Assembly (NCBI RefSeq): GCF_001423965.1
Contig: NZ_LMPV01000008.1
Span: 62,001-126,000 of the forward strand
Length of the DNA stretch: 64,000 nt
Reading direction: 5' to 3'
Source of the DNA: Exiguobacterium sp. Leaf196
GTDB taxonomy: Bacteria > Bacillota > Bacilli > Exiguobacteriales > Exiguobacteriaceae
The translations under genes were made by a program, and so were the position numbers. This document shows, one piece after another, positions 12,143 through 29,481 of this stretch (positions are counted from its first letter, which is position 1; the number at the start of each line of letters is the position of its first letter). The notes beneath the pieces are model-generated. The model saw nothing but the letters and a program-made list of their open reading frames with translations, had not been told where the DNA came from and searched no databases.

Positions 12143-12181
12143 AATACATGTCCTAGCAAGTACATTACGTACTGCAAACAT

Positions 12182-12254
12182 GATTCTGTAGCTCAGCTGG
12201 GAGAGCGCTACCTTGACAGGGTAGAGGTCGCTGGTTCGAGCCCAGTCAGAATCA
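12182..12254 (+). tRNA. tRNA-Val (anticodon GAC), copy 1
   Basis: A 73-nt cloverleaf: acceptor arm GATTCTG with CAGAATC, D-arm GCTCAGCTGGGAGAGC, anticodon stem CTACC/GGTAG with loop TTGACAG (anticodon GAC), and T-arm CTGGTTCGAGCCCAG. The discriminator is A and no CCA is encoded. It stands alone with its own promoter and terminator and is identical to the copy at 22261. Confidence 0.95.
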
Positions 12255-12262
12255 TACCGAAA

Positions 12263-22232: not shown

Positions 22233-22260
22233 AAAAATATACCCAGTAACAACACAGCAT

Positions 22261-22333
22261 GATTCTGTAGCTCAGCTGGGAGAGCGCTACCTTGACAGGG
22301 TAGAGGTCGCTGGTTCGAGCCCAGTCAGAATCA
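22261..22333 (+). tRNA. tRNA-Val (anticodon GAC), copy 2
   Basis: Base-for-base identical to the tRNA at 12182-12254, including loop TTGACAG and no encoded CCA; the identity continues a few bases into both flanks (catg before the second base region, ataccgaaa after). It has its own promoter and terminator. Confidence 0.95.
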
Positions 22334-22338
22334 TACCG

Positions 22339-24989: not shown

Positions 24990-25282
24990 ATGTCAAATGT
25001 ATATCGCCGTTTTTTTCTGTTTCCAGATACTTTAATCATGCTTGTATTACTGATCGGAATAAGTGGATAGATCATCGCACAACCATTCAGTTGGTCCATT
25101 TTGCTATTCTTTTGCAACGGATTGATCGTCATGTTGCTTGCTTACGAGTGGAAGCATTATGTGGCACATGTTCTGCTAAAGCCGAGAACACGCTTTGGGA
25201 AATGGATGAAAAAACAGTCTTATCCAGCCAAGCGACACGTGATTTAGAAAAAGAATTGAATAATAAAAAAACGCCGATCCAT
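24990..25282 (+). pseudogene. Decayed fatty acid hydroxylase/sterol desaturase family gene
   Basis: From an ATG behind GGAGAGG the frame reads MSNVYRRFFLFPDTLIMLVL and meets TAG at 25068. Beyond it the same frame continues IIAQPFSWSILLFFCNG and YEWKHYVAHVLLKPRTRFGKWMKK to a stop at 25247. The second part resembles the C-terminal region of bacterial fatty acid hydroxylase-superfamily proteins. The His clusters normally lying between these segments are missing, so an internal deletion is likely. A neighbouring frame contains SSQATRDLEKELNNKK, a plausible original C-terminus, implying a frameshift too. It ends where the IS is inserted. Family assignment is from memory of motifs. Confidence 0.55.
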
Positions 25283-25368
25283 TGGGCTAACCTAAAATTT
25301 TGAGACAATATAAAACACCTTCGGAGTGGTACACTTTTAAAAAGTACTAACATCGGAGGTGTTTTTGC

Positions 25369-25711
25369 ATGGGCAAAAACGTATATTCAAGTGAAGTGAA
25401 GTGAAGTGAAGTGAAGTGAAGCGAAATGGGCAGTAGTAAAAGATAAGCTGAGTGGTAAGTTAACGACGAAAGAGATTATGGAGAAGTACGGAATCAAAAA
25501 TGAATCTCAAATTAAAACATGGATGAGATGGTATCGTGCTAACGAACATTATCGATTTGATCAGCCGATTGGAAAACAATATACCTATGGACATGGTCCA
25601 GATTCTGCAAGTGAGGATGATAAGAGAGAACGACAAATGTCTCATCTGAAGATGGAAAACGAAATCTTAAAAAAGTACATGGAGATCGAAAGAGAGTTGA
25701 GAAAGAAGTAG
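25369..25711 (+). pseudogene. IS orfA, frameshifted by a 5-bp tandem repeat
   Basis: It starts at an ATG behind GGAGG (MGKNVYSSEVK) and stops at TGA 25402 because GTGAA is repeated six times, plus one GCGAA unit, at 25391-25425. Comparison with the sequence context implies two units in an intact gene (SSEVKWAVVKDK). With seven the frame is shifted. The rest reads on in another frame: KEIMEKYGIKNESQIKTWMRWY, an IS3-type helix-turn-helix, and a coiled-coil end (MENEILKKYMEIERELRKK). The AAAAAAG slip site is at 25669-25675. Confidence 0.85.
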
Positions 25712-26556
25712 TCATAAAAATTGTAGAGTTTCTTCGGGGAAAGTATACAATCACCGCTATTCTTAGCGTTTTGAATGTACCGAGAGCAAACTATTACCGT
25801 TGGATTAAAGAATCTGTGAAAGCACCCTCGGTGCTCGAAAAAGCCATCATTGGACTAAGTAAGCAGACGAAGTATCGGAATGGACATCGAAAAATAAAGG
25901 CATTATTACAGCAAATTTATCAGTTGAAAGCCAATCGGAATACCGTGCAGAAAATCATGCGAAAACACCATCTCCAATGCCGGATCAAGCCGAAACGAAG
26001 ATGGAAGTCTCAAGGTGAGCGCATCGTAACGGCACCGGATCTCATCAAGCGCGACCTCACAGCAAGTAAACCGATTTCGTTATTGAATAAGTCCATGATA
26101 GTTGAAAGATATTTCGTCGTGCTGCCGTATTAAATATAAGTGATATCCGTCACCCACTTCTGAATCATCGCCTACAAGTTATACGAGCATCAACAAACGC
26201 CTCTTGTGATCGATACGTTGAAGATAGCGCTTGAGAACCGAAACTATCCCGAAGGGGTCATCCTTCATTCGGACCAAGGCAGTGTCTATACGTCATATGC
26301 CTTTCAAAAATTCGTTAAGAGCAATCACCTAATAAGTAGAATGTCTCGTAGAGGAAACTGTTGGGACAACGCAGTTATTGAATCGTTCCACTCTAATTTA
26401 AAGTCCGAGGAGTTCCAGTACGTCAAATTTAACTCGCTAAGAGACCATGAGGTCTCTGAACGCGTTATTAATTACTTAAACTACTATAACGAAGAACGAA
26501 TCCAAGAAAAATTAGGCTACCTGACACCGAAAAGATACGGTGTACTGGCAGCCTAA
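25681..26556 (+). pseudogene. IS orfB (DDE transposase) broken by internal inversion
   Basis: The -1 frame reads through EFLRGKYTITAILSVLNVPRANYYRW and RKIKALLQQIY and then goes wrong after LTASKP, stopping at 26131. Frame is regained at YEHQQTPLVIDTLK and includes HSDQGSVYTS (second Asp) and VIESFHSNLKSE (catalytic Glu). Reverse-complementing 26075-26164 restores KWVTDITYI-stop-YGSTTKYLS and joins both halves in frame. The first catalytic Asp is thus on the inverted segment, and one Gln codon has become TAA. Confidence 0.85.
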
Positions 26557-26621
26557 TCAAGGTGTTTTATATTGTCTCAAAATTTTAGGTTAGCCCAATC
26601 CATTGATCAGCGGTTTTTTAT

Positions 26622-27176
26622 TCACAGAACGCGCAACATGGCACGTCGAATCGTATCGAGTTCAAGTGGACGCGCAATCGATGGCCATTCGGCGATCAAC
26701 GCGATATACGTTCGAAAGATCAGGAAGGCCGTGACATCGACCGGTATGTCGCGATCGTCTTGACCAAGACGAGTCTCAAGTAATGTCTTGATATATTCGA
26801 CGACATGTCGTTCAATCCGCATCCGTAATTCCTGCATCTCTTGTAATTTTAAGTTGCGTGTTTCTTCGATGATTTGAAGAATGAATAAGTGTTGTTGCTG
26901 ATGATAGACGATGGCGTCGATCATTGCTTGTTTATTTTCTTCTACGGTCGCCTGTTCGACGTAAGCGCGTTCTGCTTCTTCTTTCATCTCTTGCAACACA
27001 CGTGTTACGAGTGATTCAAACAGATTGAGTTTACTTTCGAACAATTGATAGACGGTTGGTTTTCCGACATGAGCGCGTCGGGCGACACGCTCGATCGTCG
27101 TTCCCTTATAACCGAGTTCTGAAAAGCAAGCCATTGCTGAGTCGAGTATCAAAGTTTCTTTATCAGACTGTGTCAT
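26622..27176 (-). CDS. TetR/AcrR family regulator (YhgD-like)
   Basis: A 184-aa repressor. The N-terminal TetR helix-turn-helix (about 8-55) reads ILDSAMACFSELGYKGTTIERVARRAHVGKPTVYQLFESK; the rest is a ligand-binding helical domain. Its ATG overlaps the end of the yhgE-like gene by 14 bases, and no strong ribosome site is seen, so translation is probably coupled. The pair yhgE-TetR parallels yhgD/yhgE in B. subtilis. A 29-bp palindrome in front of the operon (29499-29527) is a likely autoregulatory operator. Its natural terminator is interrupted by the IS. Confidence 0.85.
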   Translation of the reverse strand: MTQSDKETLILDSAMACFSELGYKGTTIERVARRAHVGKPTVYQLFESKLNLFESLVTRVLQEMKEEAERAYVEQATVEENKQAMIDAIVYHQQQHLFILQIIEETRNLKLQEMQELRMRIERHVVEYIKTLLETRLGQDDRDIPVDVTAFLIFRTYIALIAEWPSIARPLELDTIRRAMLRVL

Positions 27177-29481
27177 GTTGTTTTCGTCTCGCTTTCGTTG
27201 AGAGTAGAATCCGTTTGGCTCCGAGCCCTCCAACGAAGCTGATGATTAATGCGACGACTAATATGGTCGCAAGGACTTGACTATTGGATACGAGGGCATC
27301 CGTCACACCGAGTCCAAGCGCTTCGCGGAATCCACCGACCGAATATGTCATCGGTAAGAAAGCGTGAATCGCTTGGAAGAACCCTGGCGTCATTTCGACA
27401 GGGAACGTTCCACCACTACCACCGATTTGAAGAAGGAGTAGTAAGAAGGCAAGGAACTGTCCGACGCGACCGAGTAGCATCGCGAGCGTGAACAGAATGG
27501 TAATGAACGTCATACCTGTCAAGGCAGCGAATCCATACAGCGCAGGGACACTCGCGACATCAGCATCCAGCACATAGACGATTGCTGTGGCCGCTGCGAC
27601 ACCTTGTAATGCGCCAATCGGTAAGATAAGTGATAATTTACCGACGAGGAAGCGCCATGTCAGACTCTCACCATGTTCGGGACGAATCTGATAGACCGAA
27701 GAGAACATCAAGGCACCTGCGAACAAGGCAATACTAAGGATATAAGCTGATAAACCAGAACCGTAATTGTTGACAGTCGAATAGTCATGTTCTTTTAAGA
27801 CGACGGGTTCTGCTAGCATATTATCCCGCTCTTTTGTCGGCTTGACCGTCGCGTCTTTAGCTCCTTTGCTGAGCTCATCCTTCAGTGTTTTAGCTCCATC
27901 TTCAAGTTTCGTGTTGGCATCCGCGATTTTTGAAGCACCCTCGGTCGTTTTGCCGATACCATCTGTAATCGTAGAAGAACCAGATGCCAATTGTCCTAAT
28001 CCGTTATTCAACGCGCTAGCCCCAGCTTGAAGTTGATGTGTACCATCTGACAGTTGGTTCGCGCCGTCAGCTAGTTGGGCACCGCCTGTTGCGGCTTTAT
28101 GCACACCCGCAGTATACTGACCGAGTTTTTCATTGAACGTCTGTTGTCCACTAGCTAATTGTTGTGCGCCAGACTCGACTTGTTTCGCACCATCGACGAG
28201 CTTCAATTGTCCAGCGTTTAGTTGCGATACAGCAGACTGGACTTGCTGACCACCTGCGGCGAGTTGACCGATTTTCTTCGTTGCATTTGTTGCTTGAGCA
28301 AGACTCTGATCAATTGCACCTTCTTGGGCAGCAAGACTTTGAATATTTTCTTCTAATGAACCAATAGAACCGAGTAATGTTTGTTTTTCTTCATCTGATA
28401 ACTGTTCAGAAGCAGAAATAACTTCTTTTAGTTGAGCGACGTTTGCCTCAAGTGCTTGGCGACGGGCCCGTAAGTCCTGTTTCGCCTGTTCAGCATCTTG
28501 ATTGAGTTGTGTTAAAAAGGCATTCGCAGCTTGTGCTTTTTCATCCAGTTGATTTAATCCGTTCGTCAACTGAGGAATTTTTTCATTAAGCTGAGCAGTA
28601 CCCGCAGCCAGTTGTTCTGCCCCTTGGCGTACCTGTGTTGAGCCACCGCTGAGTTTTGTTGCGCCTTCTTGAAGTTGCGCGGCACCTGCCTGTAAATTGC
28701 CACCGTTTTCATCGAGTGTGTTCAATCCAGAAGATAGCTCACCCGTTTTTTGAGCGAAGAGGGTGGTCTTTTCGTCGAGTGTCGTGACACCATCACTCAG
28801 TTTTTTCGAACCTTGATTCGCTTCCCCGAGTTTTTCGGACAGTGTCAGACTGCCATCTGCGAGTTTTCCAAGATTTGTTGCTAGTGTTCTAGCGCCATCC
28901 GCTGTTTTATGGTTACCGTCCTCGAGTTTAGAGGAACCGTCCGACGCTTTTTCCATTCCGTTTGCGATTTTCTTTAACGCACCGAATATAGCACTACTAT
29001 ATTGTTTCGTAACGGATTTTCGGATTTTTTCGTTTAACTGTTTTGCGGCAGTACTCGAAATTTGTGTTCCCGAGTAGTTTTTCGCTGGATTCAAGTAATA
29101 TTCTAACTCAATCTTCTTCGGGTGATCATCGAGTAGTGTCGTTGCATTTTTAGAAAAATTCTTTGGAATGACAACTGTCATGTAGACTTTTCCGTCACGC
29201 AATTCTTTCTCTGCCTTATCCTGAGACAAGAACTGCCAATCAAAATCATCATTTTTTTTGAGTTTATCGACGAATTGATCCCCGATGTCGACTTTCTCTC
29301 CTTTAAACTTTGTCGCCTGATCTTCGTTGACGATAGCAACCTTAATATCTTCTGTACGACCGTACGGGTCCCAGAATGCAGATAAGAAGATGGAGTTGTA
29401 AAGAAACGGTACGAGGATGAGGGCGAGAATAACGACGATCATCATCGGACTCTTCAATTTCTTCCATTCTGAGCGAAACAT
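27163..29481 (-). CDS. yhgE: YhgE/Pip family membrane protein
   Basis: A 772-aa protein of the YhgE/Pip (phage infection protein) family, related to ABC-2 membrane domains. One N-terminal helix (about 12-32) is followed by a long extracytoplasmic region (about 40-570) and a C-terminal block of about five helices (575-755). The middle contains many 11-14-residue repeats of the QLxxGxxQLxxG type, predicted as long helices, plus a charged coiled coil (about 340-400). Function in export or envelope integrity is unsettled. AAAGGGGA lies about 9 bases before the ATG. It is co-transcribed with the TetR gene. Confidence 0.87.
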   Translation of the reverse strand: MFRSEWKKLKSPMMIVVILALILVPFLYNSIFLSAFWDPYGRTEDIKVAIVNEDQATKFKGEKVDIGDQFVDKLKKNDDFDWQFLSQDKAEKELRDGKVYMTVVIPKNFSKNATTLLDDHPKKIELEYYLNPAKNYSGTQISSTAAKQLNEKIRKSVTKQYSSAIFGALKKIANGMEKASDGSSKLEDGNHKTADGARTLATNLGKLADGSLTLSEKLGEANQGSKKLSDGVTTLDEKTTLFAQKTGELSSGLNTLDENGGNLQAGAAQLQEGATKLSGGSTQVRQGAEQLAAGTAQLNEKIPQLTNGLNQLDEKAQAANAFLTQLNQDAEQAKQDLRARRQALEANVAQLKEVISASEQLSDEEKQTLLGSIGSLEENIQSLAAQEGAIDQSLAQATNATKKIGQLAAGGQQVQSAVSQLNAGQLKLVDGAKQVESGAQQLASGQQTFNEKLGQYTAGVHKAATGGAQLADGANQLSDGTHQLQAGASALNNGLGQLASGSSTITDGIGKTTEGASKIADANTKLEDGAKTLKDELSKGAKDATVKPTKERDNMLAEPVVLKEHDYSTVNNYGSGLSAYILSIALFAGALMFSSVYQIRPEHGESLTWRFLVGKLSLILPIGALQGVAAATAIVYVLDADVASVPALYGFAALTGMTFITILFTLAMLLGRVGQFLAFLLLLLQIGGSGGTFPVEMTPGFFQAIHAFLPMTYSVGGFREALGLGVTDALVSNSQVLATILVVALIISFVGGLGAKRILLSTKARRKQHDTV

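What the first reader, a model, noticed from the sequence alone, without database searches (positions are those of the whole stretch)
26075..26164. A 90-bp inversion inside the IS transposase removes the first catalytic Asp
The orfB frame breaks after LTASKP and returns at YEHQQTP. Reverse-complementing exactly 26075-26164 restores the missing KWVTDITYI...YGSTTKYLSTIMDLFNNEI block in frame with both sides. The ends carry the short inverted repeat GAT/ATC. Micro-inversions in a single IS copy are rarely noticed because gene callers just report a truncated transposase. The block also holds CAA-to-TAA, so damage came in at least two steps.
Basis: partly seen in the sequence, partly recalled or inferred. 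Interest (0 to 1): 0.72.

Follow-up and report, generated by a model that had tools for sequence, protein, structure and literature searches.

The report
A 90-bp flip in a dead transposon
One copy of a bacterial jumping gene carries a 90-base stretch turned back to front, most likely a DNA-copying slip that, with other damage, left the element dead; it is a well-documented example of a rarely seen kind of mutation, not a new system.

Summary
Window 26075-26164 is the reverse complement of the matching 90 bp in all 19 other full or near-full copies of this IS3-family element found in the genus (Exiguobacterium). In 79 of 79 further loci, mostly other genera, the block also lies the usual way round. 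The left junction occurs in 1 of 19 genus genomes, this one. The block carries the first DDE aspartate. The end repeat is 4 bp here (chance about 2%) but 2-3 bp in relatives. One junction base departs from a clean inversion, which fits template-switch copying slightly better than cut-and-paste. The genome has no Ku match. The copy also has a 25-bp expansion in orfA, a CC-to-TT change giving the stop, and a right end identical to its left end. A same-species genome has the empty site. No other micro-inversion turned up in 221 kb compared with it. Best reading: replication template switching, a known kind of mutation. A side result may matter more: this IS group sits in intrinsic terminators (15 of 19 Exiguobacterium sites against 4.5% of random sites).

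The parts
25283..26597 (+). IS3-family element, only copy of this IS found in the genome
   Evidence: own-genome search finds only this locus and its own terminal repeats; 18 relatives measured are 1290-1291 bp; NCBIfam transpos_IS3 and Pfam rve on the orfB of relative L007
25283..25321 (+). left terminal repeat (IRL), 39 bp, same as in relatives
26559..26597 (-). right terminal repeat, now an exact copy of IRL; with 2 bp of flank the identity is 41 bp
   Evidence: in relatives IRR differs from IRL
25369..25711 (+). orfA, disrupted
   Evidence: 25-bp expansion changes the frame; 9 of 10 relatives translated have an open orfA
25398..25422 (+). 25-bp expansion, five extra AGTGA-type units
   Evidence: absent from 7 of 7 aligned relatives
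25651..26556 (+). orfB (DDE transposase), disrupted by the inversion
   Evidence: frames; open orfB in 10 of 10 relatives translated; Pfam HTH_21 in the left piece and rve, rve_2, rve_3 in the right piece
26075..26164 (-). inverted 90-bp block carrying the WVTDITYI motif with the first catalytic Asp (named from general knowledge of IS3 elements); coding sense now on the minus strand
26073..26076 (+). left arm GATT of the 4-bp inverted repeat at the junctions
26163..26166 (+). right arm AATC; base 26164 is the one junction base not predicted by a clean inversion of the relatives aligned
26130..26133 (-). CC-to-TT change that makes TAA inside the block
25257..25282 (+). left half of the intrinsic terminator split by the IS
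   Evidence: joined flanks fold as a terminator-like hairpin; uninterrupted terminator in G011
26598..26625 (+). right half of the same terminator, including a target duplication of 4-6 bp (length ambiguous)

Best explanation
The feature is a real, derived micro-inversion in a single IS copy. Most likely, while the IS was being replicated, the growing strand left its template at the left junction, copied the opposite strand backwards for about 90 bases, and returned at the right junction (two template switches in one fork). The result is a 90-bp inversion whose junction is off by one base. It took the first catalytic aspartate, and most of the NQKW stretch found in the relatives, out of the transposase frame. 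The same copy has an orfA and a right end with lesions that also look like copying errors. Shown: the inversion, its absence from the relatives searched, its direction, and the other lesions. Inferred: the polymerase template switch, that the copy died recently, and whether the flip came before or after this insertion and the other lesions.
For: Opposite orientation in 19 of 19 genus copies and in 79 of 79 further loci (four are the same E. antarcticum copies). The left-junction pattern occurs in 1 of 19 genus genomes, this one (the right junction was not searched). Base 26164 is not what inversion of the aligned relatives gives; a copying model with unequal switch points (one A skipped, one A copied twice) explains it without an extra mutation. 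No Ku match in the genome, while the control search rings in B. subtilis, 1 of 14 control genomes. The same copy shows a tandem expansion and a right terminal repeat made identical to the left one; arm homogenisation and spacer inversion are reported together for template switching between inverted repeats (PMC8604942, passages). G011, same species, has the uninterrupted site, and differences private to the window copy are 19 synonymous, 11 missense and 1 stop, both of which fit a recent death.
Against: In the probable ancestor the repeat at the breakpoints is only 2-3 bp, and 2 bp or more is found in 16% of random segments. The spacer inversions in PMC8604942 had arms longer than 9 bp and spacers with 2-5 substitutions. 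The authors of PMC8755829 doubt that two jumps can occur within a 3-4 nt repeat. The odd junction base could be an independent substitution. No other inversion was found in 221.4 kb aligned to G011, so the process is not frequent here. In the two relatives folded, no hairpin joins the two breakpoints.
Confidence: 0.6

Rival explanations
1. Repair of a double-strand break inside the block by microhomology-mediated break-induced replication, as proposed for human-chimpanzee micro-inversions.
For: PMC8755829 (passages) reports 59 micro-inversions of 17-33 bp, each flanked by inverted repeats of 3-75 nt, and proposes this route for short or imperfect repeats; the window repeat is 4 bp.
Against: It predicts much the same product, so the sequence alone does not separate it from fork template switching; this segment is longer than those reported.
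Confidence: 0.22
2. Cut-and-paste inversion: two breaks, the 90-bp piece religated backwards by end joining, plus one independent substitution or an imprecise join.
For: Length is conserved at 90 bp; repeat use at the ends is minimal.
Against: No Ku match in the genome, with a working control; a loose 90-bp fragment is unlikely to be kept; a clean join needs a separate A-to-T change at the junction, while 4 of 27 private coding substitutions outside the block are transversions.
Confidence: 0.08
3. A reversible DNA switch (intragenic inverton) driven by a site-specific recombinase.
For: The block is bounded by an inverted repeat.
Against: The repeat is 4 bp, far below the recombination sites of known invertases (recalled); 98 rows for other copies, 94 distinct, are in one orientation; the copy carries other lesions that no flip undoes.
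Confidence: 0.03
4. Assembly or amplification artefact.
For: The genome is in 13 contigs, reads are not available here, and several structural oddities fall in one element.
Against: The IS is single copy in this genome, so there is no second copy to confuse; the block carries 4 private substitutions, so it is not a mis-copied piece of a searched relative; the flanks are collinear with G011 at 98.5% and 99.4%.
Confidence: 0.05

Closest known systems
Micro-inversions between human and chimpanzee (PMC8755829, passages seen)
   Same: Short, near-clean inversion with an inverted repeat of a few bases at the ends
   Different: Those are 17-33 bp in ape genomes; this one is 90 bp in a bacterial IS and has only 2-3 bp of repeat in relatives
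Template-switch mutations, four-point model (PMC7954356, passages seen)
   Same: The product can be written as one local switch: left fragment, reversed middle, right fragment
   Different: The statistical model of that paper was not run here; the pattern is an inversion, not the majority patterns that create single inverted repeats
Template switching between short inverted repeats in yeast (PMC8604942, passages seen)
   Same: Spacer inversion and arm homogenisation; both kinds of mark are present in this IS copy
   Different: Their inverted spacers are a few bases long with arms over 9 bp; here the spacer is about 90 bp with arms of 4 bp or less, and the homogenised arms are the IS ends 1.2 kb apart
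Spontaneous inversions in Salmonella (PMC3411829, passages seen)
   Same: Inversion at short inverted homology in a bacterium
   Different: The deduced cut-off for true inversions there was 12 bp or more of junction homology

Membership tests
IS3 family (element) | orfB with DDE integrase core and HTH | tested here: met
   relative L007: NCBIfam NF033516 287.7 bits, Pfam rve and HTH_21; the window pieces hit HTH_21 and rve separately
IS3 family (element) | two overlapping ORFs with orfB in the -1 frame | tested here: met
   orfA and orfB in different, overlapping frames in relatives; an A6G run lies at 25669-25675, but frameshifting itself was not tested
IS3 family (element) | terminal inverted repeats and 3-5 bp target duplication (range recalled) | tested here: met
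   12 of the 18 copies scored show a 3-4 bp duplication, 1 shows 2 bp and 5 show none; of those 5, one has its flank swapped with another copy and one is part of a tandem pair; the window copy is ambiguous, 4-6 bp
IS150-like group of IS3 | placement by a tree or ISfinder comparison | not tested
   no such comparison was run; 'IS150-like' in my notes is recalled
micro-inversion | relatives share the opposite orientation, flanks collinear | tested here: met
template-switch mutation | inverted repeat at the switch points | tested here: inconclusive
   4 bp in the window, 2-3 bp in relatives
template-switch mutation | polymerase switch at a fork | not testable with these tools
   needs a mutation assay
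site-specific inverton | recombination-site-sized inverted repeats | tested here: not met
   4 bp only; usual site size recalled
site-specific inverton | both orientations in the population | not testable with these tools
   no reads; 98 rows for other copies (94 distinct) show one orientation

The most novel reading that the evidence does not exclude
All structural lesions of this copy (the 90-bp inversion, the right end rewritten from the left end 1.2 kb away, and the pentamer expansion) stem from one template-switching episode, favoured because this IS group lives inside terminator palindromes. Living in hairpins would then make these elements prone to self-destruction by replication errors.
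Probability: 0.12. Interest if true: 0.5.

Novelty: new member of a known kind. Interest (0 to 1): 0.33.

Why it matters
It is a clean, polarised bacterial micro-inversion of 90 bp with almost no repeat at its ends, in a genome without a Ku match, so it is a useful case for asking how such flips form when classical end joining is absent. It also shows that a truncated transposase can hide an inversion. The side result, an IS3 group that inserts into intrinsic terminators in Exiguobacterium and in five other Bacillota species, is directly testable and bears on how an IS finds a conserved, low-cost target.

Tried and rejected
A second copy in the same genome: none. The left inverted junction in 19 genus genomes: only this one. 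An exact 18-base junction match in a viral contig is taken as chance: the IS matches that locus only over those 18 bases and orfB does not match it. Phage records: no match to the IS. Plasmids: 28 records with partial matches, none covering 80% of the query. A hairpin joining the two breakpoints: folding of relatives L005 and L007 pairs the right breakpoint region with a site outside the left breakpoint, not with it, so I dropped a simple stem-loop origin. In that same script the motif search hit the wrong place in L020b and L033, whose folds are empty, and the L005 and L007 segments were cut one base short; redid the breakpoint repeats, not the folds, for all ten. Mutation spectrum inside against outside the block as a clock: 4 against 27 changes, too few. 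Genome-wide rate: only contig C8 was compared (222.9 kb, 221.4 kb aligned, 110 mismatch clusters of 4 or more, 0 inversions); only clusters of equal length could be tested, so inversions with indels would be missed. Literature: searches in the open library. Where hits exceeded the rows shown I saw only the top 12-20 (for example 20 of 972, 12 of 357); among the rows shown I saw no report of a micro-inversion inside an IS, nor of IS3 elements targeting intrinsic terminators. Passages of PMC9208149 concern regulatory motifs inside IS copies, not terminator targeting. Subscription papers are mostly not held.

Full report
What is there. The window holds one IS3-family element at 25283-26597, the only copy of this IS found in its genome. 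In the genus, 19 full or near-full copies lie in three of the 18 other genomes searched (G002 ten, G004 five, G016 four); one of the five in G004 is only 79% identical and one lacks its right end. G004 has a contig of the same length as one of E. antarcticum DSM 14480 (815985 bases) and G001 one of the same length as an E. acetylicum plasmid record (133106), so the genus is Exiguobacterium. Of ten relatives translated, ten have an open orfB of about 300 codons and nine an open orfA; the first element of a tandem pair has a one-base deletion early in orfA. The orfB of relative L007 scores 287.7 bits for the NCBIfam IS3 transposase.

The inversion. The segment 26075-26164 aligns to the opposite strand in 19 of 19 other copies. 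Aligned as three separate pieces against seven relatives, the left flank is 93.5-95.2% identical, the re-oriented block 86.7-94.4% and the right flank 89.7-93.9%. To the G004 copies the block is about as close (92-94%) as its flanks; to the G002 and G016 copies it is less close (87-88%) than its flanks (94-95%). This fits a block turned in place, though the second comparison is weaker support. In the ten relatives measured the canonical block is exactly 90 bp. Of 190 relatives found in named genomes 79 loci were kept, mostly from other Bacillota and four of them the E. antarcticum copies; the block is canonical in 79 of 79 and no minus-strand piece of 13 residues or more was found. A 22-base left-junction pattern with up to 3 mismatches occurs in 1 of 19 genus genomes, this one; the right junction was not searched. 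The block holds the WVTDITYI motif with the first catalytic aspartate; naming it the first D of DDE rests on general knowledge of the IS3 family.

Direction and age. G011, a genome of the same species, has an uninterrupted terminator at this place and is collinear at 98.5% over 25 kb to the left and 99.4% over 37 kb to the right. This insertion is therefore younger than the split of the two strains, or was lost cleanly from G011. Because a dead element can be moved by another copy's transposase, the flip could be older than the insertion. Differences private to the window copy in coding positions are 19 synonymous, 11 missense and 1 stop. No neutral expectation was computed, and some of these changes may lie on the branch leading to the relatives; I read the excess of silent changes as selection acting until recently. 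Other lesions of the copy are a 25-bp expansion of an AGTGA-type repeat that breaks orfA, the CC-to-TT change that gives the TAA, and the right terminal repeat, which is an exact copy of the left one over 39 bp plus 2 bp of flank, whereas in relatives the two differ. By contrast the 18 copies measured are all 1290 or 1291 bp long.

Ends and mechanism. In the window the junctions carry a 4-bp inverted repeat, GATT/AATC; 2.0% of random 90-bp segments of this IS have as much. In relatives the repeat at the same places is 2 or 3 bp, and 16% of random segments of L007 have 2 or more. One base at the right junction (26164) is not what a clean inversion of the aligned relatives would give. Either an A-to-T change came before or after, or the product was made by copying with unequal switch points, one A being skipped at the left and one used twice at the right. 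The second needs one event instead of two; an imprecise end join could also give it. Private transversions are few in this copy (4 of 27 private coding substitutions outside the block). The genome gives no match to the Ku family, and the control search rings in B. subtilis (1 of 14 control genomes), so classical end joining is unlikely. I therefore favour a two-switch template-switching event, with microhomology-mediated break-induced replication as a close rival that sequence alone cannot exclude.

How common. Contig C8 was aligned to G011 over 221.4 kb, with 110 clusters of four or more differences; none of the equal-length clusters is an inversion. The event is thus rare in this genome at this divergence, though only one contig of 13 was compared and inversions with indels would be missed.

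What is known. Passages of PMC8755829 describe 59 human-chimpanzee micro-inversions of 17-33 bp, all flanked by inverted repeats of 3-75 nt. Passages of PMC8604942 describe spacer inversion and arm homogenisation as products of template switching in yeast. Passages of PMC7954356 give the four-point model, and passages of PMC3411829 describe spontaneous inversions in Salmonella with longer homology. This case is a new member of that kind: bacterial, 90 bp, with very short repeats.

Side result: where the IS sits. The IS splits an intrinsic terminator between a putative small membrane-protein gene (no family search was run on it) and a TetR-type regulator gene. With one test, 15 of 19 Exiguobacterium insertions (17 single copies, one tandem pair, the window) lie inside a terminator-like hairpin, against 272 of 6000 random sites in 260 kb of G011. 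The test is crude: it accepts some weak hairpins (L018, L119) and rejects L115, L118, L120 and L122, of which L115 looks like a hairpin by eye. Two copies in G002, L018 and L120, about 25 kb apart and in opposite orientation, appear to have swapped flanks: pairing the flanks crosswise gives two terminator hairpins, one with a 4-bp target duplication, which suggests that recombination between them inverted the stretch in between. In five other species of Bacillota, picked from those with several copies, 14 of 20 copies pass the same test; one N. rhizophilus copy with masked flank (L105) and one A. pseudofirmus copy (L096) were left out, other multi-copy species were not tried, and no random control was run there. 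The G016 copy L032 sits, by the look of its flanks, in the orthologous terminator, shifted by one base. The nearest reports I saw are IS1397 and ISKpn1 in REP palindromes (PMC1525189, passages) and IS1272 replacing stem-loops (PMC5678879, passages); in PMC6211511, on a Firmicutes IS3 group, a term search found 'terminator' only in the reference list.

Noticed in passing
25257-26625; L005, L006, L007, L018, L019, L020, L031, L032, L033, L114, L116, L117, L119, L121; L041, L063, L101 and others: This IS3 group inserts inside intrinsic-terminator hairpins: 15 of 19 Exiguobacterium sites against 272 of 6000 random sites, and 14 of 20 copies in five other Bacillota species, without a random control there.
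   Followed up: partly
26559-26599 and 25281-25321: Right terminal repeat plus 2 bp of flank is an exact 41-bp copy of the left end; in relatives the two ends differ.
   Followed up: partly
L032 against window 25257-25282: A different genome (G016) has an apparently independent insertion of the same IS in what looks like the orthologous terminator, shifted by one base.
   Followed up: partly
L018 and L120 (G002): Apparently swapped flanks between two copies about 25 kb apart in opposite orientation, as after an inversion by recombination between IS copies. L069 and L071 also look swapped by eye.
   Followed up: partly
L020 (G004): Two copies of the IS in tandem, the first lacking its right end; the outer flanks of the pair form one terminator-like hairpin.
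   Followed up: partly
24990-25247: Putative small membrane-protein gene next to the IS has TAG where G011 has TAT, plus a one-base difference just upstream of its ATG.
   Followed up: no
12181-12255 and 22260-22334: Two tRNA-Val (gac) genes about 10 kb apart.
   Followed up: no
27163-29481: YhgE/Pip-family membrane protein next to a TetR-type regulator gene.
   Followed up: no
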